A stretch of DNA of 64,000 bases, taken from NCBI GenBank assembly GCA_024709425.1, contig JANJWS010000012.1, positions 1 through 64,000 of the forward strand. Reading direction: 5' to 3'. The number at the start of each line of letters is the position of its first letter. Positions within the stretch are counted from its first letter, which is position 1. Under the pieces are notes generated by a model. That model worked only from the letters and a program-made list of their open reading frames with translations, ran no database searches and was not told the DNA's origin. The position numbers were made by a program, and so were the translations under genes. Origin of the DNA: Thiobacillus sp. GTDB lineage: Bacteria > Pseudomonadota > Gammaproteobacteria > Burkholderiales > Thiobacillaceae. Below, piece after piece: positions 2,359-20,461 of the stretch.

Positions 2359-4569
2359 ATGCGAGTGCCGACCGGCTCGCGGTTGAATCGCAAGCTTGCG
2401 GTTGCGTCCTGCCGCCTCATTCCGCTGCAACATGCCGACATGCCAGCGCAACACACCAGCCACCCGGCGCCCCCGACAGGCGGTTTCCTCCTGTCCGTGC
2501 TCGATCCGGACAATCTGTTCGCCGCCTGGGAGAAGGTGCGCGGCAACGCGGGCATCGCCGGGGTCGACGGCCAGGGCGTCGACGAGTTCGGGCACAATGT
2601 CTTCGCCCGCCTGCTCACGCTCAAGCACCAGGTCGAGCGCGACGAGTATCGTCCACAGCCGCTGCGCGTGCTGTCCATGCCCAAGCCGGACGGCAGCCAG
2701 CGCCGTCTTGCGGTGCCCGCGGTGCGCGACCGCGTGCTGCAGACCGCAGCGGCACGGGTACTCGGCCCTGTGCTCGACAAGCATCTCGAAGACGCCAGCT
2801 ACGCCTACCGCGCCGGCCGCTCCGTGCCCATGGCCGTCGCGCGGGTCGCACACCATCGCGACCAGGGCTACCAATGGGTCGTCGACGCCGACATCGAAAC
2901 CTTCTTCGACCAGATCGACCACGACCTCCTTCTCGCCAAGCTGCGCCGCACCCTCGATGACCACAGCCTGCTGCCGCTCATCCAGCTGTGGCTGGCCGCC
3001 ACCCTCGTCGAACCCGGCAGCAGCCAGCCACGTCTGCTCACGCGGGGCGTCCCCCAGGGCTCGCCGATTTCGCCGCTGCTGTCCAACCTCTACCTCGACG
3101 ACTTCGACGAAGCCCTGCTCGAACGCGACCTGCGCCTGGTGCGCTTCGCCGACGACTTTCTCATCCTGTGCAGGGATCGCCAAGCCGCCGGCCAGGCGCT
3201 CGAACTCACCGGGGAAGTCGTCGACGCGCTGCGCCTGCGGCTCAAACCGGAAAAGACCCGCATCACCCATTTCGACGAAGGCTTCAGCTTTCTCGGTGTC
3301 GACTTCATCCGCAACCTCATGCGTCCCGCCGATCCCGCCGCCGCGCCGTGGGTCATGCCGCAGGCCCGGCACTTCGCCGCGCTCCCCGCCGCGTCGACCG
3401 CGCCCGCGGATCAGGCGCCGCCCGACCTCGTCGCCGCCGATGCATCCGAACTGCGCGGCGACGTCGAAACCTGGGAATCCGCCCGCCAGCCGCTCGAAAC
3501 CCTTCCTGGCCTCGACGCCCCCGATGCCGCCGTCCAGGTCGATGAAAACCCCGCGCTCGAACCCATCCTGCGCAGCCTCGTCGTCCTCGAGCAGGGGCTC
3601 ACCCTGCTGAAGGAAAGCGAGCGCATCCTCATCGCCCGCGGCCGCGAGCCGCTCGCCAGCATTCCGCTCAACAAGCTCGACCAGGTCATCGTCCACGGCA
3701 ACCACCTGGTGAGCACCGCCCTGTTCCGCCATGCCCAGCGCACCGGGCTGCAGATCGCCTTCGCCGAGGTCGCCGGGCGTCCCCTCGGCCGGTTCGACGG
3801 CCGCCGGCAGCCCGTACTCGAACTGCAGCGCCGCCAGTTTGCCCGTGAAGGCGAAAGTGATTTCGCACTCATGCTCGCGCGCGCCTTCGTCGGCGGCAAG
3901 ATCCACAACGGCCGCCTCCTGCTGCGCCGCCACAACCGCCGCCGCCAGCTCGCCGGCCTCCACGACGCCGAGACCGCGATGGCCGAGCTCGAATTCAAGC
4001 TTTCCACCACCACCGGGGTGGAGAGCGTGCGCGGCATCGAAGGCGCGGCAGCTCGCCACTATTTCCGCGCGCTCGCCGAACTCGTCGACGAAAAATGGGG
4101 CTTCGAGGGGCGCCGCCGCAACCCGCCCACCGACCCCCTGAACGTGCTGCTCTCCTACGGCTACGGCGTGCTGTTCAACACCCTCTACACCCTGGTCGAA
4201 CGGCGGGGGCTCAATGCCTGGCTCGGCGCCCTCCACACCTCGAACGGGCGCCACCCGGCCCTCGTCTCCGACCTCATGGAGGAATTCCGCGCACCCGTCG
4301 TCGACGCCGTCGCCCTCAACGCCCTGCTTCACGCCCTCAAGCCCGCCGACTTCGTCCGCAGCGACGGCGACGACCTGCCCTGCCGCCTCACCGACGGCGC
4401 GCGCAGGCGCTACGTCCAGTGGCTGCAGAACAAGTTCCGCGCCGCCATCGTGCATCCCCGCGCCGGTCAGCGCCTCGACCACCACCGCCTCATGCAGGCG
4501 CAGGTCTACCACTACGCCCGAGTCGTCCTCGGCGAAGAGCCCGTCTACCATCCCGTCCGCCTGAAATGA
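2359..4569 (+). CDS. cas1: Reverse transcriptase-Cas1 fusion, CRISPR adaptation protein
   Basis: A 736-residue fusion. Residues ~45-325 are a group-II-intron-like reverse transcriptase: DADIETFFDQID (first catalytic Asp ~178), RGVPQGSPISPLLSNLYLDD (~230), FADD (263-266) and LRLKPEKTRITHFDEGFSFLG. A Pro/Ala-rich linker leads to Cas1 (~400-736) with its metal ligands in place: Glu561 in IEGAAARHYF, His626 in ALHTSNGRH, Asp638 in SDLMEEFR. Cas1 integrates spacers with Cas2; fused RTs in type III systems can allow acquisition from RNA (known for Marinomonas and Fusicatenibacter). There is no N-terminal Cas6 domain; cas6 is separate at 8431. The ATG at 2359 has GGGGAG five bases upstream; ATG 2440 is the alternative, and the stretch between them includes a dispersed palindrome. 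The stop overlaps cas2 as ATGA. Confidence 0.96.
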   Translation: MRVPTGSRLNRKLAVASCRLIPLQHADMPAQHTSHPAPPTGGFLLSVLDPDNLFAAWEKVRGNAGIAGVDGQGVDEFGHNVFARLLTLKHQVERDEYRPQPLRVLSMPKPDGSQRRLAVPAVRDRVLQTAAARVLGPVLDKHLEDASYAYRAGRSVPMAVARVAHHRDQGYQWVVDADIETFFDQIDHDLLLAKLRRTLDDHSLLPLIQLWLAATLVEPGSSQPRLLTRGVPQGSPISPLLSNLYLDDFDEALLERDLRLVRFADDFLILCRDRQAAGQALELTGEVVDALRLRLKPEKTRITHFDEGFSFLGVDFIRNLMRPADPAAAPWVMPQARHFAALPAASTAPADQAPPDLVAADASELRGDVETWESARQPLETLPGLDAPDAAVQVDENPALEPILRSLVVLEQGLTLLKESERILIARGREPLASIPLNKLDQVIVHGNHLVSTALFRHAQRTGLQIAFAEVAGRPLGRFDGRRQPVLELQRRQFAREGESDFALMLARAFVGGKIHNGRLLLRRHNRRRQLAGLHDAETAMAELEFKLSTTTGVESVRGIEGAAARHYFRALAELVDEKWGFEGRRRNPPTDPLNVLLSYGYGVLFNTLYTLVERRGLNAWLGALHTSNGRHPALVSDLMEEFRAPVVDAVALNALLHALKPADFVRSDGDDLPCRLTDGARRRYVQWLQNKFRAAIVHPRAGQRLDHHRLMQAQVYHYARVVLGEEPVYHPVRLK
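2389..2400. repeat. 12-bp palindrome CGCAAGCTTGCG, copy 2
   Basis: Lies inside the N-terminal codons of RT-cas1 (reading NRKLAV) if the 2359 start is used. Its flanks in reverse complement (ACCGCAAGCTTGCGATT) match the copy at 20593. Confidence 0.7.
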
Positions 4570-4847
4570 GCCGCTTCTGGATGGTCTGCTATGACATCTC
4601 CGACCGCCGGCTTCGGCGCGACATTGAGCAAAGCCTGCTCGGCCTTGGCGAGCGCGTGCAGGAAAGCGTGTTCGAGTGCCAGCTCGGCATCGAAACCCTG
4701 CGGATGCGCCTGCAGCCTCTTGCCGCGCGCCTCGACCGCGCCACCGACAGCCTGCGCGCCTACCCCCTGTGCGCCTGGTGCGAAGACCGCACCGAATGGC
4801 GCGGCGAAGGCCGGCGCACCGAAGACCCCGACCTGTACCTCGTGTGA
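4566..4847 (+). CDS. cas2: Cas2, first of two tandem copies
   Basis: A 93-residue Cas2: MSRFWMVCYDISDRRLRR gives the first beta strand with the conserved YDI Asp, then GERVQESVFECQL, the dimer-interface motif. It is translationally coupled to RT-cas1 through ATGA. Compared with the second Cas2 it has a longer charged C-terminus (DRTEWRGEGRRTEDPDLYLV). Cas2 bridges Cas1 dimers in the integration complex. It is clearly paralogous to the next gene, sharing the GERVQESVFEC block. Confidence 0.93.
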   Translation: MSRFWMVCYDISDRRLRRDIEQSLLGLGERVQESVFECQLGIETLRMRLQPLAARLDRATDSLRAYPLCAWCEDRTEWRGEGRRTEDPDLYLV

Positions 4848-4856
4848 GGCTCGAAC

Positions 4857-5129
4857 ATGCTTGTCATCTGTTACGACATCGCCGACGATCGCCGCCGCAA
4901 CCGCGTCGCCCGGCTGCTCGAAGGCCACGGCGAGCGCGTGCAGGAAAGCGTCTTCGAATGCCACCTCGATGCCGCCCGGGTGCGACAGCTCAAGGCAGCC
5001 GTCGACGACGCCATCGACCCCCACGCCGACCGCGTGCGCTACTACAGCCTGTGCCGCAAGGACGTCGCCCTCGTCATCTGCCACGGCACCGGCGGTGCCC
5101 CGGCCGACGCCGTCGACGTGCTGATCTGA
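4857..5129 (+). CDS. cas2: Cas2, second of two tandem copies
   Basis: A 90-residue Cas2 starting MLVICYDIADDRRRNRVARL with the conserved Asp, followed by GERVQESVFECHLD. It begins nine bases after the first cas2 and ends just before the CRISPR leader, the usual adaptation-module position. Whether the two copies form a heterodimer or serve different Cas1 states cannot be read from sequence. Confidence 0.93.
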   Translation: MLVICYDIADDRRRNRVARLLEGHGERVQESVFECHLDAARVRQLKAAVDDAIDPHADRVRYYSLCRKDVALVICHGTGGAPADAVDVLI

Positions 5130-5290: not shown

Positions 5291-7041
5291 GTTTTTAGGC
5301 CCCGACTTTCAAAAGGGGATTGAGACGCCGAACTGGCCCGCCACGTTGTACGTGTAGTTTTTAGGCCCCGACTTTCAAAAGGGGATTGAGACTCCTTTCA
5401 GCGGCCGAGGGCGAGGGAGAGGAAGTTTTTAGGCCCCGACTTTCAAAAGGGGATTGAGACCGGATGACCTCGCCGGTGTCCGGGTTGAGAAGGTTTTTAG
5501 GCCCCGACTTTCAAAAGGGGATTGAGACTGTTGGTGACCAGATCTTCGGTCTTCCGCTCGCCGTTTTTAGGCCCCGACTTTCAAAAGGGGATTGAGACTC
5601 GAGGAACATCACCTCGCCGCGATCATTTACGGTTTTTAGGCCCCGACTTTCAAAAGGGGATTGAGACTACGGCGCCGAGACACCATATCATCTTCTCCAG
5701 TTTTTAGGCCCCGACTTTCAAAAGGGGATTGAGACCGGCGTTCTTGTCGGTGTTGCTCATTTCAATCGTTTTTAGGCCCCGACTTTCAAAAGGGGATTGA
5801 GACTGCTTTTCATTTTCATTGCTTCTCCTGAGAAGTTTTTAGGCCCCGACTTTCAAAAGGGGATTGAGACCCCGAGACGTACAGCTTCACGCCGTCCGCC
5901 AGGTGTTTTTAGGCCCCGACTTTCAAAAGGGGATTGAGACGTCTTCGATAATGATGGCCATCTTTATCTCCTGTAGTTTTTAGGCCCCGACTTTCAAAAG
6001 GGGATTGAGACCCTCGACGCCCGCTCCCTTCAGCTTGGCCACCTGTTTTTAGGCCCCGACTTTCAAAAGGGGATTGAGACCCCGGAGGCTGCGAAACTTG
6101 CGGCGGCGGGCTGGCGTTTTTAGGCCCCGACTTTCAAAAGGGGATTGAGACGCCGCGGTCTGGCCACTCGTCGTCGTAATGCGTTTTTAGGCCCCGACTT
6201 TCAAAAGGGGATTGAGACGATTTTTCTTGGCGTTAAAAACCCCCCACGGGTTTTTAGGCCCCGACTTTCAAAAGGGGATTGAGACGCACGACCCTATTTT
6301 CTTCACGTACATGTACTCAAGTTTTTAGGCCCCGACTTTCAAAAGGGGATTGAGACTTTTAGTAGGATGTGTTTGCGGCGGCCGCAAACGGTTTTTAGGC
6401 CCCGACTTTCAAAAGGGGATTGAGACAGGAAGACCACTTCGCCGCGATCATTTACGATCGTTTTTAGGCCCCGACTTTCAAAAGGGGATTGAGACCGGTG
6501 TGCTTGGCGAACTCGCGGCCGTTCATCGTTTTTAGGCCCCGACTTTCAAAAGGGGATTGAGACCAATGACGGGCAAAAGCATAGTGTCCCCATGCCGTTT
6601 TTAGGCCCCGACTTTCAAAAGAGGATTGAGACGCCGGGGCACTGATTTCGATTTCCTCGACCTCGGTTTTTAGGCCCCGATTCAAAAGGGGATTGAGACC
6701 TTGCGTCTGCCGCGGGCGGGGCCCGCGACACGTTTTTAGGCCCCGACTTTCAAAAGGGGATTGAGACGGACGTTTCAGGCCGCGACCTTGAGCTCGATTG
6801 TTTTTAGGCCCCGACTTTCAAAAGGGGATTGAGACTCAGAGAACGTACACAGTATTGATTCTCGAAAGTTTTTAGGCCCCGACTTTCAAAAGGGGATTGA
6901 GACTTAGTAGCATGTGTTTGCGGCGGCCGCGAACGGTTTTTAGGCCCCGACTTTCAAAAGGGGATTGAGACATCTGTCGTCCGTTTTCGAGCTTCACAAA
7001 GAGCTGTTTTTAGGCCCCGACTTTGAAAAGGGGATTGCGAC
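5291..7041 (+). CRISPR. CRISPR array, 26 repeats of 36 bp and 25 spacers of 30-35 bp
   Basis: The repeat begins GTTTTTAGGCCCCGACTTTC and ends AAAAGGGGATTGAGAC; CCCC (positions 10-13) and GGGG (25-28) can form a short hairpin. All repeats are identical except number 20 (6597-6632, one G to A), number 21 (6666-6699, a two-base deletion) and the terminal number 26 (7006-7041, C20 to G and A33 to C). Spacers 5 (5599-5631) and 17 (6427-6459) are near copies, as are 16 (6357-6390) and 24 (6904-6935). Several spacers, read in reverse complement, look like gene starts. Transcription is rightward, so the crRNA has the plus-strand sequence. Confidence 0.99.
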
Positions 7042-7228
7042 ACGGTGTTCTCGTTCGAGGACACCACGTTCAGTGCTTCGGGGGGGCGACATCGCACCAA
7101 TAATCGCGAAGGCGTGTTGCGTCCTTGACTCTGAGGGCGTAGGATTTAACGAGTGTGGCGTCTTGCCATCCCGGACCGCGAAACCGGCTCTGCCCGTTTC
7201 CCCCTCCCCACCCCTTGTCCCGCTTGCT

Positions 7229-7310: not shown

Positions 7311-7607
7311 ATGATCCAGATCAGCCAGGAGTCGCTGAAGCCGTTTGCCCGCAAGTACATCTGGTGGAAAACACCAGAAGAGGCCGTGGCCATGCCTGAA
7401 CGGGTGATTGCTCAAGTCATGAACATCGGCGACTACTATGACGTTCAGGCACTTGTCTCACAGGTAGGTGAAGAGGTGCTTCGCGACGTCCTGACGCACG
7501 CAGAAGCAGGCCAGTTCAACGAGCGCTCTTGGGCGTATTGGCATTACCGTCTCGGCCTGTCGAGCGTGGATCATGTTCCGGCCTTGCCTGCGCGGAAGTT
7601 TGCATGA
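7311..7607 (+). CDS. Probable antitoxin partner of AbiEii-like toxin
   Basis: A 98-residue protein: MIQISQESLKPFARKYIWWK at the start, then PEEAVAMPERVIAQVMNIGDYYDV and the terminal SWAYWHYRLGL with LPARKFA. Small proteins of this pattern are commonly found immediately upstream of AbiEii-type nucleotidyltransferases. The stop overlaps the next start as ATGA, which supports a coupled toxin-antitoxin pair. The pair sits between the CRISPR array and cas6, on the same strand. Antitoxin function is inferred from position only. Confidence 0.7.
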   Translation: MIQISQESLKPFARKYIWWKTPEEAVAMPERVIAQVMNIGDYYDVQALVSQVGEEVLRDVLTHAEAGQFNERSWAYWHYRLGLSSVDHVPALPARKFA

Positions 7608-8287
7608 CGGGGACGTTCAAACCTTGCATGGACATATTGCCGCCCACACAGAAGCACTTGTGGCCGGAACTCAGAAATGCCCAGAAGCTCGGATTCACGC
7701 TGTACGGCGGCACCGCTATTGCACTTCGACTGGGGCACCGTGATTCAGTCGATTTCGATTTCTTCTCGGAAAAGCCGCTTGACCGGAACGCCATCAAGTC
7801 GGCTTTTCCATTTATGAAGCAGTCCACAACGCTTCAAGATCAAGACAATACTTGGGTTGTGTTTGTGCCCTGCGGAAACTCAGAGCGAGAACACGTCAAA
7901 GTCTCGTTCTTCGGCACGATTGCTTTCGGCAGGGTGGGAGAACCGGACTTTACCGACGACGGCGTCTTGCAGGTGGCTTCCTTTGACGATTTGATGGCGA
8001 CCAAGCTCAAGGTCGTGCTCCAGCGTGCGGAGGCCAAGGACTATCGTGACGTCGCCGCGATGATCAATGCCGGTGTGAGTCTGTCACGTGGCCTCGCGTC
8101 TGCCCGGCAACTATACGGGCCGAACTTCCAACCGAGCGAGAGCCTGAAAGCACTTGTCTATTTCAATGACGGCGACTTGAAAACCCTTGGCGCCGACGAG
8201 AAGAAGACGCTGGTCGATGCCGTAAAAATCGTGCGCGACCTCCCTGATGTGGCGTTGCGCTCGAAGTCTCTGAGTGGTCTGAGTTGA
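7604..8287 (+). CDS. AbiEii/AbiGii-family nucleotidyltransferase toxin
   Basis: A 227-residue protein with the nucleotidyltransferase signature LYGGTAIALRLGHRDSVDFD (~residues 33-52), followed by FASFDDLMATKLKVVLQRAEAKDYRDVAAM-like sequence, in which the KD..D part is typical of AbiEii. Family members act in type IV toxin-antitoxin/abortive infection; some, such as MenT, modify tRNA 3' ends. The start at 7604 overlaps the antitoxin stop. The gene ends 104 bp before the solitary CRISPR repeat at 8392. Its base use is less GC-rich than the flanking cas genes, consistent with separate acquisition. Confidence 0.82.
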   Translation: MTGTFKPCMDILPPTQKHLWPELRNAQKLGFTLYGGTAIALRLGHRDSVDFDFFSEKPLDRNAIKSAFPFMKQSTTLQDQDNTWVVFVPCGNSEREHVKVSFFGTIAFGRVGEPDFTDDGVLQVASFDDLMATKLKVVLQRAEAKDYRDVAAMINAGVSLSRGLASARQLYGPNFQPSESLKALVYFNDGDLKTLGADEKKTLVDAVKIVRDLPDVALRSKSLSGLS

Positions 8288-8391: not shown

Positions 8392-8427
8392 GTTTTCAGG
8401 CCCCGACTTGGAAAAGGGGATTGGCAT
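8392..8427 (+). promoter_or_regulatory. Solitary degenerate CRISPR repeat in the cas6 leader
   Basis: 36 bp matching the array repeat at 30 of 36 positions, without spacers. The CCCC/GGGG hairpin arms are intact; the changes are at positions 6, 19, 20, 33, 34 and 36, so the ATTGAGAC end becomes ATTGGCAT. It ends three bases before the cas6 ATG, and its AAAAGGGGA (8412-8420) is the only plausible ribosome site. Cas6, which binds this hairpin, could thus control its own message. It shares the C20-to-G change with the last repeat of the array, suggesting it is the far end of an ancestral array. Confidence 0.88.
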
Positions 8428-8430
8428 CCA

Positions 8431-9333
8431 ATGCTGGAATCACTGAACGGCCTGCCGCTGATGCGGCTGCATTTTGCATTTCGGACGACGGCGCCGCTGA
8501 GCCTTTATGGCTATACCGGTTCGACCTGGCACGGGGCACTGGGCCACGCGCTGAGCGAGGCGGCGCCGGAGGCATTCGACTGCCTGTATCGCGCCGCGGC
8601 GGGGGACGACGCGCCACGGCCCTTTGCCCTGCTGCCGCATGCCGGGCCGACCGAACTGGCGCCAGGCGACTGGCTCGGCTTGAGCCTTACGCTTGCCGGG
8701 CCGGCGGTGGCGCTTTCGCGCGAGGTGATGTTCGCGATGGAGCACCTGGGGGCGCGCGGGCTGGGCAACCAGCATGTGCCGCTGGCGCTTTCCGGCGTGG
8801 GGTGCGAACGCGCCGACGGCGAAGCGGTCGCGGTGCTGGGGCCAGCCGGGACGATGCAGGCGCAGGCGCTGGTTCCGGTCGAGCTCGCGGAATTGGCTGC
8901 TATCTGGTCGGGACTGCCGGCGCGACGCGTGGCGCTGCGCTTCGATACGCGTCTACGGATGAAGGCAGGCAACGGCCTCATGGACACGGTCCCGCCCCTG
9001 CGGTTGTTGCTGCAGCGCCTGCTCGAACGGGTGAGCGCGCTGATGATGCTGTACGGCGCCGGCGCAGCGCTGCCGGACGACGGGGTGCGCACCTTGCTCC
9101 GGCATGCGGAATCGGTCGAGGTCGAAGGTCACGACCTGCGCTGGGAGGAATGGGGGCGCGTCTCGGGGCGCAGCGGCCAGCACATGCCGTGGGGCGGACT
9201 GGTGGGCGAAGTCCGTTATCGCGGCGACCTCACGCCCCTGCTGCCATGGCTGGCGCTGGGCGAATGGCTGCACGTGGGCGCCAAGACGACCTTCGGCCTG
9301 GGGCATTACTCGCTTCTGGCGGCGCCACGTTGA
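8431..9333 (+). CDS. cas6: Cas6 pre-crRNA endoribonuclease
   Basis: A 300-residue RAMP protein. The start matches Cas6 of the PF10040 type (LHFAFRTTAPLSLYGYTGS), and the C-terminus carries the family hallmarks MPWGGLVGEVRYRGDLTPLLP and LGEWLHVGAKTTFGLGHYSL, the last being the Gly-rich RNA-binding loop. It cuts repeats to give crRNAs with an 8-base 5' tag. The catalytic residues vary in this family and I do not assign them. The gene runs rightward and converges with the effector operon; its leader is a lone CRISPR repeat. Confidence 0.93.
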   Translation: MLESLNGLPLMRLHFAFRTTAPLSLYGYTGSTWHGALGHALSEAAPEAFDCLYRAAAGDDAPRPFALLPHAGPTELAPGDWLGLSLTLAGPAVALSREVMFAMEHLGARGLGNQHVPLALSGVGCERADGEAVAVLGPAGTMQAQALVPVELAELAAIWSGLPARRVALRFDTRLRMKAGNGLMDTVPPLRLLLQRLLERVSALMMLYGAGAALPDDGVRTLLRHAESVEVEGHDLRWEEWGRVSGRSGQHMPWGGLVGEVRYRGDLTPLLPWLALGEWLHVGAKTTFGLGHYSLLAAPR

Positions 9334-11469: not shown

Positions 11470-13503
11470 TCATGTATTTTCCGGCGCCATCGGGTAGACA
11501 GGCAGCACCAATCCAGCCTTCTTGGCGTCTTGGAAAGGATTGTTTCCTTCGTCCTGCGACATGTGCACCAGCGTCTGGGCCTTACCGATGTCCGGGTTGG
11601 CCATGGCCAGCAGCGTCCGAATTTCGCCCGAGCCGCGCCAGGATTTCCCACCCCTGCCGGCGGCGTGGGCCGCCTCCATGTATGTGGTGAAACGTGCCAT
11701 GCATTCTTCATGGCTGGGTGCAGCGCGTTCTTGCTGGTTGGGCACGATTTCACAGGACTTGATGTCGATTTTGACCTGCCCCATGCCGAAGGGCTTGCCC
11801 ATGCCGAGAGAATGCCGGTAGCGGTCGCCACCGCCCCAGCTGAGCGCCCAGACGAGCGCGCCGAGTTCTTCGGGTAGCAGGTTGTGGAAGCGGATGCGGG
11901 TTTCGAACGGGGTGCCGGCTGGCAGGGGATTGAGCTGGGTCTGGATGTCCCGGTTCTTCTGCTGGTCCGGCGTGGGGGCCTGGCGTTTGTGGCTGCCGCG
12001 CACGGGGTAGCGTTTCCAGCCGCGCACTTTGGCGTCTTCCTTCATCAGGGTAATGTACTTCCCGTCGCGCAGTTTGCCGCCTCCCGAATTGGCAGCTTGC
12101 TGCAGGATGTAATTGGGAAAGTAGGAGGCCTTGGGGCCGCTGAGAATGGCAGCGGGCAAGGACTCGGGCTGGACCTGGCCCTGGGCGACGGCATGGCCGA
12201 AAGACACGCGGCTGCGCAGGCCGTTGCCGGTTTCTTCGGCGATGTGGCCGAAGAGGGTCTCGCAAAAATCCGCTTCGCCCTGGCGGGCCTGCTTTTGCGT
12301 GTTCCGGATGGCCTGGCCGACGGTCAGCTTGTAGGGCAGGCGGTACATCTGCGCGAGCCCCATGGAAGCAATCCCGCCTTTTTCATCACGCAAGAAAAAA
12401 ACGGGCGTACCCCGCTCGCCATAGGGCCGCTCGCGCGTGTGGAAATCCCAGACGACCGAAGCGGGTGGGCGTCGGCCGCTGTTGCTTTCCTTCGAGGGGT
12501 TGTGCAATTCGAGAAAAGCCTTCATGACGCCCTCCGGCACGGGAATCGGCTCACGCGGATCGCCAGCGTCGAAGAACATGAACTCCATGTGCTTCTTGGG
12601 GCCGGGCTGGCCGGTGAAGACAAGGTGGCCGATGTGGTTGCCATTGCCGACCCGCGTGACACGCCTGTAGTAAAGGTGCTTGCGCTGGCCGTTCCTGTCC
12701 TCGCTGTGCGGATGGGCGAGGGGCTTGTCATCCATTTCGTAACGCACCTGCAGCCATTTCCAGGTCGGCTCCTTGGAAAGCTTCTTCCCAATCATCTCGA
12801 CGAAACGACGGTACTTGAGGATGGGCAGCTTCGGGTTCAGCTCGTCCTTGCCCTGCTCAAGACTGACCGAACCTGATCTGGCAATCTGCCTGAACGGCCC
12901 CAATGACCCTGGATCGGCGTCCTTGGGGCGGAGCAAGTTGTCGAGAACATCGTGATCGACACGAGCATGCTCACAGGGGGTAATCAGCCATTCGCCATTC
13001 TTGTATTTCAGCCAGCCGGTCTCCGGCAGGGCAACATAGGCCTTTTGCCGTCCCCCGTCCTTGTCGGCCTTCCAAACCGTATCCGCAAATTTCTCCTGGT
13101 AGTCGTTCTTGGTTGGGCCGGAGAGGTCCCTCAACGCGAATTGCTGGTCGTCCACCGCGCTCATGCGACCGAAGGCGGCGATTTCCAGCACGTTGCGAAT
13201 CATGCCCTTGAGGCTGGCGCCAGGTATGGCATAGGCGCCGTCCGGAAGCCGGCAGGGGTGAACGGCGCCGCTCCCGGCCGCTTTCTCACTGCCGATGAGA
13301 ATGGGGGTCTCGGCAATGATCTCGATGTCCAGTTCGCCGCAGAGCCCGTCCTCGAACGGCAGGTCGTGGGACACGGCCGCTGCCCATTCCGGAATATGAA
13401 CCCAACTGGACAGTGGGACGAAGTTGTAAGACGCGGTGATGGTGCTTGGCGCGGAGATCCCCGCGCCCTGCTGGTTGGGCGATCGATACCGGGAATCGTT
13501 CAT
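11470..13503 (-). CDS. TIGR03986-family RAMP protein of the type III complex
   Basis: A 677-residue RAMP-superfamily protein. It has the RAMP entry LDIEIIAETPILIGSEK (~60-76), the Gly-rich AIPGASLKGMIRNVLE loop (~92-107) and a second RAMP half near the C-terminus (GTPFETRIRFHNLLPEELGA and RHSLGMGKPFGMGQVKI). Length and layout fit the TIGR03986 family found with Csx10/Csx19 systems. It probably forms part of the backbone or cap of the effector. Its start overlaps the csx19 stop as ATGA. Confidence 0.85.
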   Translation of the reverse strand: MNDSRYRSPNQQGAGISAPSTITASYNFVPLSSWVHIPEWAAAVSHDLPFEDGLCGELDIEIIAETPILIGSEKAAGSGAVHPCRLPDGAYAIPGASLKGMIRNVLEIAAFGRMSAVDDQQFALRDLSGPTKNDYQEKFADTVWKADKDGGRQKAYVALPETGWLKYKNGEWLITPCEHARVDHDVLDNLLRPKDADPGSLGPFRQIARSGSVSLEQGKDELNPKLPILKYRRFVEMIGKKLSKEPTWKWLQVRYEMDDKPLAHPHSEDRNGQRKHLYYRRVTRVGNGNHIGHLVFTGQPGPKKHMEFMFFDAGDPREPIPVPEGVMKAFLELHNPSKESNSGRRPPASVVWDFHTRERPYGERGTPVFFLRDEKGGIASMGLAQMYRLPYKLTVGQAIRNTQKQARQGEADFCETLFGHIAEETGNGLRSRVSFGHAVAQGQVQPESLPAAILSGPKASYFPNYILQQAANSGGGKLRDGKYITLMKEDAKVRGWKRYPVRGSHKRQAPTPDQQKNRDIQTQLNPLPAGTPFETRIRFHNLLPEELGALVWALSWGGGDRYRHSLGMGKPFGMGQVKIDIKSCEIVPNQQERAAPSHEECMARFTTYMEAAHAAGRGGKSWRGSGEIRTLLAMANPDIGKAQTLVHMSQDEGNNPFQDAKKAGLVLPVYPMAPENT

Positions 13504-13994
13504 GCGCTAGCCTCCATGAATCCGATGAAGCGGGCAACGGCAGGCTGGGTGCCGCGGTCCGGGGTGGCCTGGTAGTAAATGCTGTAGGCGAGTTCGGATT
13601 GTTCGCTGGCATGGCTGGCGAATCGGCGCTCGCACGCCAGGTGGGTCGGCGCGGCGCCGGCGATCTCGCGGTGGTGGGCGAGCAGCCAGCGGCCGCCCTG
13701 GTGGCGGATGTGCAGGCTTTCGCCGGCCTTGCACAGTTCGCCGTTGAGGACGATGCCGGCAGGCTGCAGTTCTTGCAGCAGGACGTGGCGGTCGGTGAGG
13801 GTGAGCCAGCCCTGGTCGCCGCCGAAATCGGCGATGGCGGCGCGCACGGCGGCGGGGTCGTCGACGGTCCAGGCGCGGGTGTCGAGCGCGGCCGGCCGGA
13901 ATTCTTCGGCAATCAGCTCAGCAGGCCGGTTGTGGCGGGCCTTGAAGGCGTTCCAGTCGGCGTGCAGTTGTTCGAGTGCTGCGGCTTCAGTCAT
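13500..13994 (-). CDS. csx19: Csx19-like small CRISPR protein (TIGR03984)
   Basis: A 164-residue acidic protein starting MTEAAALEQLHADWNAFKAR, with LHIRHQGGRWLLAHH and a C-terminus reading ELAYSIYYQATPD. Size and position next to csx10 fit the Csx19/TIGR03984 family, thought to be a small subunit of III-D complexes. It overlaps the upstream RAMP gene by 8 bases and the downstream one by 4. Sequence conservation in this family is weak, so the name rests partly on context. Confidence 0.75.
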   Translation of the reverse strand: MTEAAALEQLHADWNAFKARHNRPAELIAEEFRPAALDTRAWTVDDPAAVRAAIADFGGDQGWLTLTDRHVLLQELQPAGIVLNGELCKAGESLHIRHQGGRWLLAHHREIAGAAPTHLACERRFASHASEQSELAYSIYYQATPDRGTQPAVARFIGFMEASA

Positions 13995-15408
13995 CGGGAT
14001 TCTCCAGTTCGGCGAGCGCGCCCTCGATGCGCCCGGTAAAGAAGCCATGACCACGGCTGGATGCCGCACCCAGCGCGAGCCGGCCTTGGGCGAGGTCTTC
14101 GAGGGCGAGACGCAGGGCGCGGCGCATCTCGGGCGCGGCGTCACGCAGGCGCCTGCGATCGAGGGCGATGCGAAGCTTGACGGTGTCGGGCTGCGTGGCG
14201 TGAACCTGCTCTTCCTTGAACAGCCGGCCGGCGCGCGCGCCGCCGGTGAAGCGGTCGATGGAAACGTGCATCTGGGTGGTGGTCTTCCAGGTGCCGTCGC
14301 CGAGCACGGCGTCGTCGAACCACAGGCAACCGGCGAGGCCCTTGGAGGTGTCGCTGGCGTCGCCGAACAAGGGGGCGAGACCGTCGTCCCCACCCGCATG
14401 GTCGTCGAGCCGGGCGTTGCGGTCGATGAAGCGGCCGGTGAGGCGCGCGTGGTGGAAGGCGGTGCGGTGGCGCAGGGCGCCTTTGACGCTGGAGGCCGGG
14501 ATGACGATCTGGCGTGCGCCCTCCCCCGCCTTGTCGTCCCGCCAGACGATGCGCCGCTCGGTGTAGGGCACGGCATCGGCGGGCTTGCTGTCGCGGTTCA
14601 GCGGGGTCGCGCCGGGCTGGCCGATGCGGAAGCCGGCTTCGGGGGTGAGGACGAGTTGGACGGCGAGGGAATCGCCGGCGCCCGCGGGCGGCTGGATGGA
14701 TGCGGCCAGGGGCGGCAGCGGGGCATCGAGCCGCGCGGGCCAGGCGGCGAAGGCGGCCAGGCCTTCGGCGGTGCGCAGGTCGGCCGTCAGCGCGCGAATG
14801 GCGTGTACGTCGATGGCACCGTACCCGGCGCGGGTAGCGCCGCCGAGGCGGAAGGTGGCGCTGGCGAGGGCGCCGGTCAGGGCTTCCCAGTCGGCGGCAT
14901 CGTCGGAGTCGGAGTCGGAGTCGGAGTCGGATTGCAGGATGAGGTCGAAGCTGAAGCGATGACCAGCGGGAAGAAACGCGCGGTCGAACTTGCCGGCGCC
15001 ATCGACGCTGCCGCGCCGGTTGAGGCGGACATGGTCGCGCTTGGGCGGCAGGGCATCGGCGAGCGGTGCGAGCCAGGGCGACAGCCCGGTGCGCAGTCCG
15101 TCCACAGGTCGGTTGTCCTGGTCGTGGAGGTGGCCGTGCGTCACGCTCACGCGCGAGGTGTGACCTTCCTCCGCGCCCCGGCCATGGTGGCCGAAGAGGC
15201 GGTCTGCCGCGCCCTCGCCGCGCCGGTCGACGACGTGATGCCGCAGTACGCCGGCGAGGGCGGTGCCGGGCAGGAGCGGCAGGCCGTTGGCGTCGCGCAC
15301 GAGGTGGGTGTCGAAGATGCCGTCGTTGCGCCCGCTGGCGATCGACAAGGGCGCGGTCGTCTCAAGCGTGACGCGCGCGAGACGGACGATGGGGTGGATG
15401 GGGATCAT
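13987..15408 (-). CDS. Double-domain Csm3-like RAMP protein
   Basis: A 473-residue protein with two RAMP domains. The first (~1-215) has LETTAPLSIASGRNDGIFDT and GLPLLPGTALAGVLRHHVV; the second (~240-473) has PEAGFRIGQPG, IPASSVKGALRHRTAFHHAR and a C-terminal ASSRGHGFFTG Gly-rich loop. Each Csm3-like unit normally holds one stretch of crRNA and, with a loop Asp, cuts target RNA once. An SDSDSDSDSDD run at ~166-176 is encoded by a 6-bp repeat. The start at 15408 forms ATGA with the csx10 stop. Confidence 0.87.
   Translation of the reverse strand: MIPIHPIVRLARVTLETTAPLSIASGRNDGIFDTHLVRDANGLPLLPGTALAGVLRHHVVDRRGEGAADRLFGHHGRGAEEGHTSRVSVTHGHLHDQDNRPVDGLRTGLSPWLAPLADALPPKRDHVRLNRRGSVDGAGKFDRAFLPAGHRFSFDLILQSDSDSDSDSDDAADWEALTGALASATFRLGGATRAGYGAIDVHAIRALTADLRTAEGLAAFAAWPARLDAPLPPLAASIQPPAGAGDSLAVQLVLTPEAGFRIGQPGATPLNRDSKPADAVPYTERRIVWRDDKAGEGARQIVIPASSVKGALRHRTAFHHARLTGRFIDRNARLDDHAGGDDGLAPLFGDASDTSKGLAGCLWFDDAVLGDGTWKTTTQMHVSIDRFTGGARAGRLFKEEQVHATQPDTVKLRIALDRRRLRDAAPEMRRALRLALEDLAQGRLALGAASSRGHGFFTGRIEGALAELENPDD
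14903..14931. repeat. 6-bp tandem repeat (TCGGAG)n within a RAMP gene
   Basis: Nearly five copies of a hexamer on the plus strand, read on the minus strand as alternating Ser-Asp. Changes in copy number would keep the reading frame. Confidence 0.85.
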
Positions 15409-16973
15409 GCCGCGCCTCCCTTGCTGTGTGTGCGGTTCCACGCTGCGTCGGCCCTGGCGAGCGCGGCCAGGCGAATGATGCCGCGCGCGCCGACGCCTTC
15501 TTCATGGGCATTCCTGACGGCGGCTTCGAGCCAGGTGCGGAAGGTCTCGCCCGGCTTGCCGCTCGCGGTGTCCCAATCCTCGTCGCCTTTCTTGCACATT
15601 GCGGAATCACCTTCGAACAGTGCCGCCAACAGGGGTTCGCGGCCGGGTTGGCTGACGGCGGTTTCCTGCACGCGCCCCCACTGGGAGGCGCCCGGGCCGC
15701 ACGCCAGGTCCGGGGCGATGCCGTTGTAGCGGCGCGCCGATGCGTAGGTGCCACGCAGTTCTGCAAGCGTCTTTTCCGCCCAGGCGTTGGCTTCGAATTC
15801 GCCCTTGTCGCGCTGCTCGCCCGCGGTGAGCCAGGCGACGAGGGGATGATCGGGCCTGGCGGGCGGCTTGGCCGGAATTGCCGCGGCGGCGGCGACGAAT
15901 TCGTGGTTGCGCTGCAACAGCAGCCGCGTCAGCGCGGGGTCGAGCACGATTTCTCCAAGCCCGGCCTCGCGGTGCTCGCCCAGGCTGGCCGCGAGCCGGG
16001 CGCCGAGTTGGGCCTCGGCGGCCGGATCGGGGCGGCGATCGAGCCGGTAGCAGAGCACGCTGCCGGCGCCGATGACCTGGCGTTCGAGATCGTGGCTGCC
16101 GCGCCGGGCGTTGTAGGGCCGGTAGCGGCGGGGTCGCACGAAGGTCTTTTCCACCGCGCCGCCGCCGGAGAGGATATCGGCGAGGCCCAGGTCGGCAAGG
16201 CTGGGGGTGTAGGTGGGCATGCCGGTCCGGATGTCACGCACGGCGAGGTCGGAAGCGAGCCAGAGGACGAGATGCCAGGCGCCATCCAGCTCCGCGAGCG
16301 GCAGGCAGGGCGAGGCAGCGGGCGCGGGCTGCGTTGCGGAGAGAATGCGGGCGCGGCCGTACTGGGCGGAACGCGATCGGCCGAGGTGGAGCACGCTGCC
16401 CAGTTGCGCATGCAGCGTTTCGAGGAGACCGGCGTCGTCCGCGGTGATGCGGGCGCGGAAGCGCTGGCCGCGCGCGAGGGCTTCGTAGCCGAACAGCTGG
16501 CTCTCGGCCGCGCTGCCGGTGGCGCGGTCGATGGCGGTTTTCATTCGGTAGCGGGTGCGGGGACGCACATGTGCGTCGGTCTCGCCGACGAAGCCTTCGC
16601 GGATCTGCTGGGCCTGCTGGAACGCGCTGTCTTTCACGCCGACCGCGACCAGGCTGGCGATGGCGCGGGAATCCCAGCGGCCGTCGCGCTGCGGGGCGTC
16701 GCCGCCCTTGTCGCTGTGCCAGGCGAGCGGCACGGGCCAGGTGCCGCGGTCGCCGGCGGTGAGCGGCCGCGCATCGCCGAAGCGCACCCGCCCGGCGTGG
16801 AAGAGGTCATACATGCGCGGGTCGTTGGCGTCATACATGCGGGATGCCAGCGCGCCCAGAAGCGTGGCACCGGGGATGTACGGCAGGCAGCGGTGCTGTC
16901 CGGCGGTCGCGCTGGCGCGGCTGACGACGATTTCGTCCGCCAGTTCGAGGTCGAGTACCAGCTCGTGCATCAT
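15405..16973 (-). CDS. csx10: Csx10, type III-D RAMP protein
   Basis: A 522-residue protein beginning MMHELVLDLELADEIVVSRA. Csx10 marks are CLPYIPGATLLGALASRMYD, FHAGRVRFGDARPL with PVPLAWHSDKG, RPRTRYRMKTAIDRATGSAA with QLFGYEAL, and LHLGRSRSAQYGRARI. In III-D complexes Csx10 takes the Cas5-like place near the crRNA 5' tag. The first ATG (16973) overlaps the upstream stop as ATGA; a second ATG follows at once. Its presence is the main reason for assigning the locus to subtype III-D. Confidence 0.9.
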   Translation of the reverse strand: MMHELVLDLELADEIVVSRASATAGQHRCLPYIPGATLLGALASRMYDANDPRMYDLFHAGRVRFGDARPLTAGDRGTWPVPLAWHSDKGGDAPQRDGRWDSRAIASLVAVGVKDSAFQQAQQIREGFVGETDAHVRPRTRYRMKTAIDRATGSAAESQLFGYEALARGQRFRARITADDAGLLETLHAQLGSVLHLGRSRSAQYGRARILSATQPAPAASPCLPLAELDGAWHLVLWLASDLAVRDIRTGMPTYTPSLADLGLADILSGGGAVEKTFVRPRRYRPYNARRGSHDLERQVIGAGSVLCYRLDRRPDPAAEAQLGARLAASLGEHREAGLGEIVLDPALTRLLLQRNHEFVAAAAAIPAKPPARPDHPLVAWLTAGEQRDKGEFEANAWAEKTLAELRGTYASARRYNGIAPDLACGPGASQWGRVQETAVSQPGREPLLAALFEGDSAMCKKGDEDWDTASGKPGETFRTWLEAAVRNAHEEGVGARGIIRLAALARADAAWNRTHSKGGAA

Positions 16974-17569
16974 GCGGATTCCTTGAACGAGAGCGAGACG
17001 CGGCCGAAGCCACGGTTGCGGTGGGCGCCGAGCGCCCGCACGAGGGGCAGGGCCGTGCGCAGGAGATCGAAACCGGGGCCGGCGTGCGGCTCGCTGCCGA
17101 TGCTGATTTCGGCGACCAGCGCCATGGGCACAACGGTCTCGATGCCGCGCAGCGACGATGGGCTGGCGGTGCCTCTGGCGTGGTCGATGCGGGTGGAGAA
17201 GTGCTCGCGGAACAGGCGCTCGCGGTAGTCCTTGCCCTCCCCGGAAGCGAGCCATTGGGCGACGTCGTCCGGCAGGCGCGCATCGCTCGCATGCAGGACA
17301 CCCGGCATGCCGTGCTCGGCACCGCCATCGCCGTGGCCCGGCCTGCCGAAAAGCACGCCCAGGAGCGCCTCGGTTTCGGCGCCGGCTGCGCGCCATTCGG
17401 CCAGCCGTTCGGTCGCGTCGCGCAGCACGCCCTTGAGCATGCGCCCCGGAACGTAGGGCAGGCCATACTCGTCGCGGTCGACGATGGCGTCGAGATGGGC
17501 GCCGCGGCCACGGCCGCTGCCGACGTGCCACAGGTCGTGGAATTCAAGCTGCAGGGTGCGCGTGTTCAT
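16970..17569 (-). CDS. Csm3-like RAMP protein
   Basis: A 199-residue single RAMP domain: LQLEFHDLWHVGSGRGRGAH, then DEYGLPYVPGRMLKGVLRDA, the Gly/Lys loop shared by Csm3 and Cmr4, and a C-terminal RALGAHRNRGFGRVSLSF loop. The Asp residue used for target RNA cleavage cannot be fixed without a structure alignment; HLDAIVDRDEYG holds the candidates. It overlaps cas10 and csx10 by 4 bases on each side, so it is made together with them. Confidence 0.88.
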   Translation of the reverse strand: MNTRTLQLEFHDLWHVGSGRGRGAHLDAIVDRDEYGLPYVPGRMLKGVLRDATERLAEWRAAGAETEALLGVLFGRPGHGDGGAEHGMPGVLHASDARLPDDVAQWLASGEGKDYRERLFREHFSTRIDHARGTASPSSLRGIETVVPMALVAEISIGSEPHAGPGFDLLRTALPLVRALGAHRNRGFGRVSLSFKESA

Positions 17570-19218
17570 GGACGATCCTCCGGAGCGGCGCCGGCACGGC
17601 TCATGGCCAGCAACGTCACGACATCGCCGATCGGGGTGGCCGGACCTTGCAGGCCTTCGGCAAAAAGCGAATTTCCCGGATCGATCACGCCCAATGTGCG
17701 GAGGGTTTCGTCGATCTCGGCAAGCAGCTTGCCGGCCGATTTGCCGACGTTGGCGCGCCAGCGGGCGTAGCGTTCCCGCATCAGGTGGGAGGACTGGTGC
17801 ATGAGCATCGCGAGTTCGCGCATGGCGCCGCGCGACAGGTGTTCGCTGGCGAAGTGGCCCTGCAGGGTCTCGAGATCACGCCAGTGCGGCAGGCTGGTCT
17901 GTGCGGCGATTTCGCCGACCCCGTACACCCCGAGGGTCAGGCGGCGATCCCCGCCCTCCCCGTCGCTGACGGTGAGCGTGTCGGCAAGGATCGTGTCCCA
18001 GTCGTCGATGAAGCTGGTGGAAATCCGGTGGAACAGGAAGCCGCCGGGCTTGAGCGCGCCGACCTTGTGGTGTCCGGCCTGCTGCTTGGCGGCCTTGCAC
18101 AGGGCCTCGGCCAGGCCGTAGGCGCTGGCAAAGGGCTGGCTGGCGCCGCAGAAGACGACGCCGGCGCAGGCCGTCAGGCGGTCCGGCAGGCCGGGAACGT
18201 CGAGGCCGGCGAGTGCCTGCTGTTTCCATTGGGCGAGCGCGGCGGCGGTTTCTTCCTCGAAGGCTTCGAGGAAGACGCGGGTGAAGTCGAGCGCGAGGTC
18301 GGCGCGGACGATGATGTTGAGGTCGTCGCCGGCGAGCACCAACGGCCGCGCCGGGAGGGTCTGCCTGTCGTCGTGGCTGACCAGCACCTGCCCCGTGGCG
18401 CGCCGGGCCGCGTTCCGGGTGGCGTCACCGATGGCATCGGAAAAGCCGCGGTAGATGGCGAGGTAACGCCGGCCAACGTCGTCCCGGCCGACAAGGGTTT
18501 GCTTGAGGGCGTTAAGGATGAGGCCGAGGCCGTTGCCGTCCGCGTGGACGATGGCGACGTTGCGCTTGGATTCAGGCAGGAAGGGGAAACCATAACGGTC
18601 CGAGTCCGATTCGGGAGTGAGTTCGCGCGGAAAAATGTAGCCCTTGTCCCATAGTTCAGGCGGCAGGAATTTCTTGCGCAGGCGCGAATCGGCTTTGCTG
18701 GCCGTGTGTTTCAGTCCGGCTGGGCCATCGCGCCATTCGCCGTTCTTGCCGCGGCCGGCAGCGGGCTCCCCGGTGCGCGGTGCCACCCGCATGTAGGGCG
18801 TGGCCTCGGGAAGCATGGTGGAAGGCTGGCTGCGCCGCTGGGCGAGCATCGCATACCCCGCGTCGACTGCTTCCGAGAAGGTTTCACCGTCGGCAAGGCT
18901 GTCGATCCACTCGAGTCCCGGCGCCACGTTCTGCACGACAAGGGTCCACAAGGCGCGCAACCGCTCTGCCCGGGGCCTGTCGGCGAGAAAGGCAACGAAC
19001 ACGCCACCCTCTCGACGCGAAAACGCGACGTGCGCGCCGTCGAGGCTGGACGGGTCGTCGGTTTCAGCCAGGCCGAGGGTTTCGAGTGCCGCGTCGAGCG
19101 TGGTGTCAGTCAGGGCGTCGATGATCTTGCTCGCGCCCACCATCTCGGCCAGGCGGCCCGAAGCGAGAATGTATTGCTGGATCGAGCGAGCCTCGAAAAG
19201 ATAGGCATGACAGGTCAT
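17566..19218 (-). CDS. cas10: Cas10, large subunit and cyclic oligoadenylate synthase, no HD domain
   Basis: A 550-residue Cas10. The palm/cyclase domain is recognisable: IVHADGNGLG (Asp227) and LVLAGDDLNIIV, whose AGDD (296-299) stands in for the usual GGDD, with both Asp present. The N-terminus (MTCHAYLFEARSIQQYILAS) is the Cmr2-like start. No N-terminal HD nuclease motif is present, so DNA cutting by Cas10 is not expected and defence should rest on cOA signalling and RAMP RNA cleavage. The C-terminal helical region begins ~430. The operon continues through an ATGA overlap. Confidence 0.93.
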   Translation of the reverse strand: MTCHAYLFEARSIQQYILASGRLAEMVGASKIIDALTDTTLDAALETLGLAETDDPSSLDGAHVAFSRREGGVFVAFLADRPRAERLRALWTLVVQNVAPGLEWIDSLADGETFSEAVDAGYAMLAQRRSQPSTMLPEATPYMRVAPRTGEPAAGRGKNGEWRDGPAGLKHTASKADSRLRKKFLPPELWDKGYIFPRELTPESDSDRYGFPFLPESKRNVAIVHADGNGLGLILNALKQTLVGRDDVGRRYLAIYRGFSDAIGDATRNAARRATGQVLVSHDDRQTLPARPLVLAGDDLNIIVRADLALDFTRVFLEAFEEETAAALAQWKQQALAGLDVPGLPDRLTACAGVVFCGASQPFASAYGLAEALCKAAKQQAGHHKVGALKPGGFLFHRISTSFIDDWDTILADTLTVSDGEGGDRRLTLGVYGVGEIAAQTSLPHWRDLETLQGHFASEHLSRGAMRELAMLMHQSSHLMRERYARWRANVGKSAGKLLAEIDETLRTLGVIDPGNSLFAEGLQGPATPIGDVVTLLAMSRAGAAPEDRP

Positions 19219-19282
19219 TGGCGCTTGTCTCGCGGAACGGGGTTCTGTTTCATTGAGATGGGGATGTTATTTACTTTTTTGC

Positions 19283-20461
19283 TTATTCGGCATTCGATGT
19301 GTCTACGGCACCGATTTGAATGTCTTTAGCTTCCAGGTCCAGCAAGCCGAAACGCATATTGAGGCGATCGCCGCTGGACTGGATGAGGTAGGGCCTGGCG
19401 GCCCGTTCGCCAAGGGCACGCACCAGTGCATTGTTGGCCTTGGCCTTGATCGGGTCGAAATAGGCCCGGATGCTGGCCGGGCGGCTGGAAGCAGGGGCGT
19501 TGGCCCTGCGCATCAGCGCCTGCCGGGCGTTGTCGAGGCGTGACGAGTCGGGGTTGTCGAGCACCTCCGCATAGGCGGACAGGAATTCCTGAATGACATC
19601 GGCGTGATCGTAGCGGATGGGAGGCAAACTCGCCTGCGCGCGCCTGGCGAGCCAGTAGTACAGCGCGAAGGGCGCATGTTCGATCCTGAAATCGACGTTG
19701 CCGCAGCGGATTCTCCGGCTTGTCGGGTCGATGACCAGGCTCGGCGGCCCCAGCCGCGTTTGGGCCGCCGCGACGACAGCGCTGAAGCTGGCGTTGCCAT
19801 CGGCAAGTTCGTCGGGCAATCCATGCCGGAGCCGGACGAAGGGAATTTCGGCAAGCATGATGCGGGCGTCGGAAGTGTGGATGGGCTTGTTGTTGCGGTC
19901 GAACAGCACCCTGGGAACGGGGGGCGGATAGTAGAAATCGTGGTTCGATTCGAAAGGCCCGGACACCAGAACATGCGATAGGCGGTCCTGCGGCCGTCCG
20001 TACAGAGACAGCGCGTAACCGGCGAAAAAGCCCATGGTCTTGCGGCCGCCCGCAATGGAGACATGCAGCGCGGTATTCTCGTCACGCGTGAAACGCCGCA
20101 CCCACTCCAGGATGGTGTCTGCGGCACTCATGTTGTCTTCGGGTGTCTGGATGTCTGGTGCCGGCCGACCGGAACGGCCGACGATCTCATGGATGAATTC
20201 ATTGTAAAACTGCACGCGCCCCGCCAGGCCAAAGTCGTGCAGCAGTTCGCTGAATCGCCCCATACCGCTGTCGAGCAGGGTGTGGCGCACGTATTCCGCG
20301 CCCTCGGCGGTTGTGATCACGTGCACCTCATCCGGGATGAAGGCCGGAAGAGCTGTCACCGCCAGGGCATAGACCGTTTCGGTCAGGATCTGGGGGGAAA
20401 GGCCGATGACGGCGAGCAATATTTTTCTCGGATAGTCGTGTGGGGCGCGTGGCAGGCCCAT
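19283..20461 (-). CDS. TIGR02584-family CARF protein, putative ring nuclease
   Basis: A 392-residue protein. The CARF domain shows KILLAVIGLSPQILTETVYA, DEVHVITTAEGAEYV and LHVSIAGGRKTMGFFAGYAL (the ligand-binding GGRK). A winged-helix-like segment follows (IEHAPFALYYWLARRA). It matches the NE0113/TIGR02584 family, which databases describe as a CRISPR-associated ring nuclease. I see no clear HEPN motif, so it is probably not a Csm6-type RNase. The ATG at 20461 with AGGA eight bases upstream is preferred to one 39 codons earlier. It is the first gene of the effector operon, 64 bp before cas10. Confidence 0.82.
   Translation of the reverse strand: MGLPRAPHDYPRKILLAVIGLSPQILTETVYALAVTALPAFIPDEVHVITTAEGAEYVRHTLLDSGMGRFSELLHDFGLAGRVQFYNEFIHEIVGRSGRPAPDIQTPEDNMSAADTILEWVRRFTRDENTALHVSIAGGRKTMGFFAGYALSLYGRPQDRLSHVLVSGPFESNHDFYYPPPVPRVLFDRNNKPIHTSDARIMLAEIPFVRLRHGLPDELADGNASFSAVVAAAQTRLGPPSLVIDPTSRRIRCGNVDFRIEHAPFALYYWLARRAQASLPPIRYDHADVIQEFLSAYAEVLDNPDSSRLDNARQALMRRANAPASSRPASIRAYFDPIKAKANNALVRALGERAARPYLIQSSGDRLNMRFGLLDLEAKDIQIGAVDTSNAE

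What the first reader, a model, noticed from the sequence alone, without database searches (positions are those of the whole stretch)
2359..20461. Subtype III-D CRISPR locus combining RT-Cas1, tandem Cas2 and four CARF/cOA-linked proteins
Seen: RT-cas1, two cas2, array and cas6 on plus; TIGR02584 CARF, cas10, RAMP, csx10, double RAMP, csx19, TIGR03986 RAMP, membrane sensor, DUF1874 and Card1-like genes on minus. Known: each family acts in type III defence. Inference: one locus joins RNA-capable spacer capture with a cyclic-oligoadenylate response having two outputs (nuclease and membrane) and one or two off switches. I do not recall this exact set described.
Basis: partly seen in the sequence, partly recalled or inferred. 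Interest (0 to 1): 0.85.

Follow-up and report, generated by a model that had tools for sequence, protein, structure and literature searches.

The report
RT-equipped type III-D CRISPR signalling locus
A bacterial CRISPR immune locus that can probably store memories from RNA and answers infection with an alarm molecule switching on a nuclease and a membrane protein, with an enzyme that turns the alarm off; every part is of a known kind, and the main new point is how the parts are combined.

Summary
Window 2359-20461 holds a complete type III-D CRISPR-Cas locus: RT-Cas1, two Cas2 genes, a 26-repeat array, Cas6, an HD-less Cas10 with an AGDD cyclase motif, the III-D RAMP set and four signalling genes. 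These are a CARF-PD-(D/E)xK nuclease (Can2/Card1 type), a DUF1874 ring-nuclease relative, a membrane protein with a SAVED-like domain, and a TIGR02584/NE0113 CARF protein. The effector cassette with nuclease, membrane protein and DUF1874 recurs in a second Thiobacillus and, with a CARF-type membrane sensor and no RT-Cas1 match, in a genome of another family. Most likely: RNA-capable spacer capture feeding a cA4 alarm with nuclease and membrane outputs and one dedicated off switch. The second off switch (TIGR02584) is unsupported; a 2014 review predicts that family to regulate transcription. Key pairings are in print (can2 beside crn2; RT-Cas1 with III-D). In the DUF1874 CRISPR loci examined, a membrane CARF or SAVED gene was adjacent in 6 of 6 (five independent). 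Verdict: real, apparently intact, a new member of a known kind; interest modest.

The parts
2359..4569 (+). RT-Cas1 fusion (ORF open from 2263)
   Evidence: Pfam Cas1 5.4e-74, RVT_1 3e-38; FADD, E and H/D Cas1 motifs present; best solved relative Cas6-RT-Cas1 7kft
4566..4847 (+). cas2a
   Evidence: PF09827 1.5e-16; YDISD motif
4857..5129 (+). cas2b
   Evidence: PF09827 6e-23; YDIAD motif
5291..7041 (+). CRISPR array, 26 repeats, 25 spacers
7311..7607 (+). 98-aa ORF upstream of and overlapping AbiEii, no family
   Evidence: no match in PADLOC, NCBIfam or Pfam at E 0.01
7604..8287 (+). AbiEii nucleotidyltransferase
   Evidence: PF08843 3.6e-17
8392..8427 (+). solitary degenerate CRISPR repeat ending 3 nt before the cas6 start
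   Evidence: 6 mismatches to the repeat; also in Thiobacillus RS341 (L022:11284-11319); 60 shuffles never under 16 mismatches
8431..9333 (+). cas6
   Evidence: PF10040 1.9e-16
9364..10488 (-). CARF-PD-(D/E)xK nuclease, Can2/Card1 type
   Evidence: PF09002 3e-19, PF23400 9e-11; Can2 7bdv 1.5e-23; NEID..ECK
10493..10816 (-). DUF1874 (Crn2/AcrIII-1 type) ring nuclease candidate
   Evidence: PF08960 7.7e-22; AFV3-109 8e-14; SAIGH and RLPEG
10824..11345 (-). membrane protein, one hydrophobic region plus one SAVED/CARF-like lobe
   Evidence: PF18145 1.8e-7; PADLOC 'CARF, 2 TMs' 2.5e-60 and SAVED_TM 2.8e-38; one hydrophobic region; model
11470..13503 (-). TIGR03986 RAMP protein
   Evidence: 312 bits
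13500..13994 (-). csx19
   Evidence: PADLOC Csx19 8.8e-6
13987..15408 (-). double RAMP (cas7 x2)
   Evidence: RAMPs PF03787 5e-28, two stretches
15405..16973 (-). csx10 (cas5-like)
   Evidence: TIGR02674 5e-7, below its cut-off
16970..17569 (-). small RAMP (cas7)
   Evidence: PF03787 6.8e-13
17566..19218 (-). cas10, AGDD cyclase motif, no HD domain found
   Evidence: PADLOC Cas10 2e-68; 8s9t 3.6e-26; motif alignment
19283..20461 (-). TIGR02584/NE0113 CARF protein
   Evidence: TIGR02584 231 bits; PADLOC CARF5 1.8e-117

Best explanation
This is a complete type III-D CRISPR-Cas immune locus. RT-Cas1 with Cas2a and Cas2b writes spacers from RNA or DNA into the array (inferred from the family). Cas6 cuts the transcript. 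The Cas10-Csx10-Csx19-RAMP complex binds matching foreign RNA, and Cas10, which has no HD nuclease domain, acts mainly by making cyclic oligoadenylate, most likely cA4. cA4 switches on a Can2/Card1-type DNA/RNA nuclease and a membrane protein with a SAVED-like lobe, probably a pore or depolariser. The DUF1874 protein cuts cA4 and ends the response. The TIGR02584 CARF protein most likely adjusts transcription rather than acting as a second off switch. Shown here: gene content, motifs, recurrence. Inferred: every activity.
Confidence: 0.8

Rival explanations
1. Two off switches: TIGR02584 also degrades cOA, so the locus has a ring-nuclease pair.
For: NCBI names the TIGR02584 model 'CRISPR-associated ring nuclease Csm6'. 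The CARF core is strongly conserved among 4 relatives.
Against: Only 10 of 242 ring-nuclease-positive loci carried more than one known ring nuclease (PMC12409355; TIGR02584 is not among the families named there). A 2014 review lists NE0113 with Csa3 as predicted transcription regulators. The C-terminal part gave no significant Pfam match, and the structure model was unusable (pLDDT 35.5), so the fold was not tested.
Confidence: 0.15
2. A partly decayed locus in which signalling is off.
For: AGDD instead of GGDD; an AbiEii gene between array and cas6; a degenerate last repeat.
Against: The 16 window reading frames translated have no internal stop; the catalytic motifs looked for in six proteins are present. 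AGDD is listed among variants in loci with effectors. Four proteins compared with RS341 are 83-92% identical.
Confidence: 0.07
3. The RT does not serve RNA capture here; RT-Cas1 takes spacers only from DNA.
For: No protospacer found to test the origin. G627 has the same effector and signalling cassette and is not among the RT-Cas1 matches.
Against: The RT FADD motif is present. RNA capture was reported for a III-D RT-Cas1 in V. vulnificus (title only).
Confidence: 0.15

Closest known systems
Vibrio vulnificus RT-Cas1 type III-D system (Gonzalez-Delgado 2019)
   Same: RT-Cas1 with a III-D effector; two Cas2 proteins both needed (this detail is recalled, from no call)
   Different: The paper is not held; only its title was seen. 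Its signalling genes were not compared.
Can2 loci with adjacent crn2 or csx16 (PMC7969007, passages)
   Same: can2 next to a Crn2 or Csx16 ring nuclease and other CARF genes
   Different: The figure legend names III-A and III-B; here III-D with a SAVED-type membrane protein and RT-Cas1
Cam1 / CARF-TM and predicted SAVED-TM effectors (PMC9704534, PMC12409355)
   Same: membrane segment plus cOA-sensing domain; Cam1 often found with a ring nuclease
   Different: The sensor lobe here is SAVED-like; no sequence match to any PDB chain at E <= 1
III-D Cas10 8s9t (organism recalled as Synechocystis)
   Same: nearest solved Cas10
   Different: significant match confined to residues 221-380

Membership tests
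CRISPR type III-D | Cas10 with Csx10 and Csx19 and III-D RAMP genes | tested here: met
   Cas10 PADLOC 2e-68 and Cas10d 1e-55, Csx19 8.8e-6; TIGR03986 312 bits; but Csx10 TIGR02674 only 29 bits against a cut-off of 177
CRISPR type III-D | Cas10 without HD nuclease, with cyclase motif (usual, not universal) | tested here: met
   the only HD pair in the protein is at residue 282, inside the palm region; AGDD present
RT-Cas1 adaptation module | RT fused to Cas1, with Cas2 and array | tested here: met
RT-Cas1 adaptation module | spacers acquired from RNA | not testable with these tools
   no protospacers found
Can2/Card1 | CARF plus PD-(D/E)xK with active-site residues | tested here: met
Crn2/AcrIII-1 (DUF1874) | DUF1874 family match with conserved His and Arg | tested here: met
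   PF08960 7.7e-22; H43 and R81 invariant in 6 aligned proteins; their catalytic role is recalled
Crn2/AcrIII-1 (DUF1874) | cA4 cleavage | not testable with these tools
   needs an assay
Csx16 (Cas_VVA1548) | PF09652 match | tested here: not met
   0 matches in this genome; none for the four DUF1874 relatives scanned at E <= 1; the model matches a protein in G823 (2.4e-38); PADLOC's model named Csx16 does match
SAVED-TM effector | TM segment plus SAVED domain | tested here: met
   PF18145 31.5 bits against a cut-off of 26.2; hydrophobic stretch within residues 8-40; SAVED rows lead the second-look list
Cam1 (CARF-TM) | sequence or fold match to Cam1 | tested here: inconclusive
   no sequence match; the fold list decides nothing for families it does not show
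Ring nuclease (TIGR02584 as second off switch) | cOA cleavage | not testable with these tools
   only the NCBI label

The most novel reading that the evidence does not exclude
The DUF1874 ring nuclease is a dedicated partner of the membrane sensor rather than of the nuclease: a reversible membrane alarm in which the sensor can be swapped between SAVED and CARF types while the off switch stays. The adjacent membrane CARF or SAVED gene was present in 6 of 6 DUF1874 CRISPR loci examined, a Can2-type gene in only 4 of 6.
Probability: 0.3. Interest if true: 0.45.

Novelty: new member of a known kind. Interest (0 to 1): 0.3.

Why it matters
It gives one compact, apparently intact locus in which RNA-capable memory and a two-output cyclic-nucleotide alarm with an off switch lie together, in a Thiobacillus-like bacterium. 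The comparison suggests that effector core, adaptation module, membrane sensor and ring nuclease are separately replaceable slots. That makes a clear test: does a membrane effector need a partner ring nuclease to be survivable?

Tried and rejected
Spacer origin: the whole array against the phage and plasmid collections in distant mode gave no match; three patterns, built from 4 of the 25 spacers, gave none in viral contigs (the other spacers were not searched there). Coding-strand test on 25 spacers: reverse strand better in 14 of 25, but the classifier is only 57% accurate even on its own training genes, so it is uninformative. Gene-start test: 3 of 25 spacers carry a ribosome-binding-site-plus-ATG on the antisense strand and 0 of 25 on the sense strand, 0.5 expected (P 0.017, one test devised after reading the spacers); kept as a remark only.

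Cas6 autoregulation by the solitary repeat: the repeat is kept in two Thiobacillus species but not in the 182 nt held upstream of the G047 cas6 (best 18 mismatches). Folding shows no unusual stability (z 0.50 and 0.99), and the CCCC/GGGG stem is absent from RS341's predicted fold. I rate a leftover repeat more likely than a regulatory element. One literature search on this (listing only) showed no title about it among the 15 rows listed of 48.

TIGR02584 structure: the single-sequence model is unusable, so no fold search was made. A winged helix in its C-terminal part is my reading of the alignment and has no Pfam support (best 0.029, HTH_36, in one of the three proteins scanned). Viral-contig scans for the membrane and TIGR02584 proteins gave no relatives, and the plasmid collection none for the membrane protein. 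Cam1 does not appear in the rows; that shows nothing against it.
Full report
WHERE. The window is contig C51 of a 2.7-Mb, 109-contig assembly, 90.5% complete. The nearest named relative found is Thiobacillus sp. RS341 (Cas10 88% identical); its contig is identical to that of G098, listed as same genus. The genome also carries a second cas1 on contig C77.

WHAT IS THERE. Plus strand: RT-Cas1, cas2a, cas2b, a 26-repeat array, a 98-aa ORF with AbiEii, a solitary degenerate repeat, cas6. Minus strand, convergent: TIGR02584 CARF protein, cas10, small RAMP, csx10, double RAMP, csx19, TIGR03986, membrane SAVED protein, DUF1874, Can2/Card1 nuclease. By coordinates the minus-strand genes overlap or lie at most 124 nt apart (for the two largest gaps), so one operon is likely. 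The catalytic motifs looked for are present in RT, Cas1, both Cas2, Cas10, Can2 and DUF1874.

SUBTYPE. Cas10 best matches the solved Cas10 8s9t (3.6e-26), which the 2025 classification calls Cas10d (passage). TIGR03986 is far over its cut-off. Csx10 and Csx19 are weak. Matches to III-A, III-B, III-E and III-I RAMP models are below cut-off. Cas10 has no HD domain and reads AGDD; in an alignment of 10 Cas10s the window and RS341 read AGDD and the other 8 GGDD. PMC11229360 (sections and passages read) lists AGDD among variants seen in loci with an effector and finds HD in 3% of III-D systems.

RELATIVES. TIGR03986 matched 11 of 117 family genomes, 4 over the cut-off, and 14 of 369 class genomes, 14 over the cut-off. 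Of these, six loci match the window strongly in cas10, small RAMP, csx10, double RAMP and TIGR03986: window, RS341, G047, G627, G823, G774. The others fetched matched weakly or were not comparable: G014, G008, G539, G625:C375, G571, G806, G679, G769, G728; G693 and G855 lie on contigs of 3.0 and 3.7 kb; G866 was not fetched as a neighbourhood, nor were the six weak family hits. In the six: Can2/Card1-type gene 5 of 6 (not G774, which has a PF09651 CARF protein). Membrane sensor found 4 of 6 (SAVED type in window, RS341, G823; CARF type in G627). Ring nuclease found in the same 4 of 6 (DUF1874 in three, PF09652 Csx16 in G823). TIGR02584 next to cas10 in 3 of 6 (window, G047, G627); in G823 it lies by what looks by eye like a second, III-B locus; the RS341 and G774 contigs end near cas10. 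RT-Cas1 seen in the window only; RS341, G047 and G774 stretches are cut by contig ends, and G627, G774 and G823 are not among the 4 of 369 class genomes with a match at 1e-60 (taken to be the same sample). PF09652 was not run on G047 or G774, and G047's stretches hold masked bases.

DUF1874 AND MEMBRANE SENSORS. PF08960 matched 5 of 369 class genomes, 4 over the cut-off. The fifth, G512, is a fragment at a contig end and was not examined; nor were the phage hits, the B. subtilis control hit, or two of the three plasmid records. The four, plus RS341 and a Vibrio aerogenes plasmid, give 6 CRISPR loci. All 6 have an adjacent membrane CARF or SAVED protein (PADLOC: 2.5e-60 window; 2.3e-29 G627, 7.9e-31 G518, 6.5e-77 G625, 9.5e-8 V. 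aerogenes; RS341's is 83% identical to the window's). A Can2-type gene is near in 4 of 6 (not seen in G518 or V. aerogenes). PADLOC also holds a model named CARF_CSX16_TM. Conversely, the SAVED-type membrane protein occurs with no DUF1874 match in the stretches seen of G136, G037 and G823, and in G047 neither was found. PMC12409355 reports ring nucleases beside Cam1 in 81% of loci in its single-effector set, so the pairing is in line with print. Two of the six are close species, so independent cases number five.

ADAPTATION MODULE. RT-Cas1 matched 4 of 369 class genomes at 1e-60. G814 has RT-Cas1 (45% identical) with tandem cas2 and an array beside genes that by eye look III-B. G769 and G728 have longer RT-Cas1 frames (1028 and 992 aa) beside TIGR03986 genes, with one cas2 each seen (G769's contig ends 0.3 kb beyond). 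So RT-Cas1 beside III-D-type genes is seen in 3 of 4, tandem cas2 in 2 of 4, and the module combines with different effectors, as PMC5513706 (passages read) concluded in 2017.

ARRAY SURROUNDINGS. A degenerate repeat ends 3 nt before the cas6 start in the window and at the same place in RS341, where no AbiEii gene lies in the 0.4 kb held upstream. Homology to RS341 starts at window 8283, at the end of AbiEii, so that gene pair came or went there. G047's cas6 has no such repeat in the 182 nt held. Both ends of RS341's contig match a dispersed repeat also found at window 1423-1722 and 45506-45792.

HOW IT LIKELY WORKS. See Best explanation. Shown: content, order, motifs, recurrence. Inferred: all activities, cA4 as messenger (from the families of nuclease and DUF1874), RNA capture, membrane damage.

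NOVELTY. Every element and the main pairings are in print. I did not see the exact set described, but my reading was limited: paper searches were seen as listings; of PMC12409355 and PMC11229360 I read sections, and of PMC12669027, PMC5513706, PMC12669630, PMC11014256, PMC12830947, PMC9048733, PMC8102632, PMC6753606, PMC4012209, PMC9704534 and PMC7969007 passages; of PMC12642688 the abstract; and two key papers are not held. I rate it a new member of a known kind.

Noticed in passing
window 7311-8287: 98-aa ORF overlapping an AbiEii nucleotidyltransferase gene sits between array and cas6; absent from the matching place in Thiobacillus RS341.
   Followed up: partly
window 8392-8427 and L022:11284-11319: Solitary degenerate CRISPR repeat ending 3 nt before the cas6 start in two species; Cas6 cleavage at the usual place (8 nt from the repeat end, recalled) would separate the purine-rich stretch from the start codon.
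   Followed up: partly
window 1423-1722 and 45506-45792; L022 both ends: Dispersed ~300-bp repeat; copies lie at both contig ends around the cas cassette of RS341.
   Followed up: partly
window 5668-5975 (spacers 6, 8, 10): Three of 25 spacers carry a ribosome-binding-site-plus-ATG on the antisense strand, 0.5 expected; post hoc test.
   Followed up: partly
window spacers at 6357-6390 and 6904-6935; 5599-5631 and 6427-6459: Two pairs of spacers resemble each other, as if taken from related targets.
   Followed up: no
L107 (G000:C77): A second cas1 with neighbours that by eye look like a type I-C locus in the same genome.
   Followed up: partly
L095:13616-13912: In G823 a Csx16 (PF09652 2.4e-38) takes the ring-nuclease place beside the Card1-type gene.
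   Followed up: yes
L076:8807-8984: G627 has a 3-repeat mini-array next to its cassette, with repeats resembling those of the window in the core; no cas1 or cas2 matched in the stretches fetched.
   Followed up: partly
L098-L099 (G539): A TIGR03986 locus with two frames matching parts of RT-Cas1 and two cas2-like frames; whether RT and Cas1 are separate genes there was not worked out.
   Followed up: no
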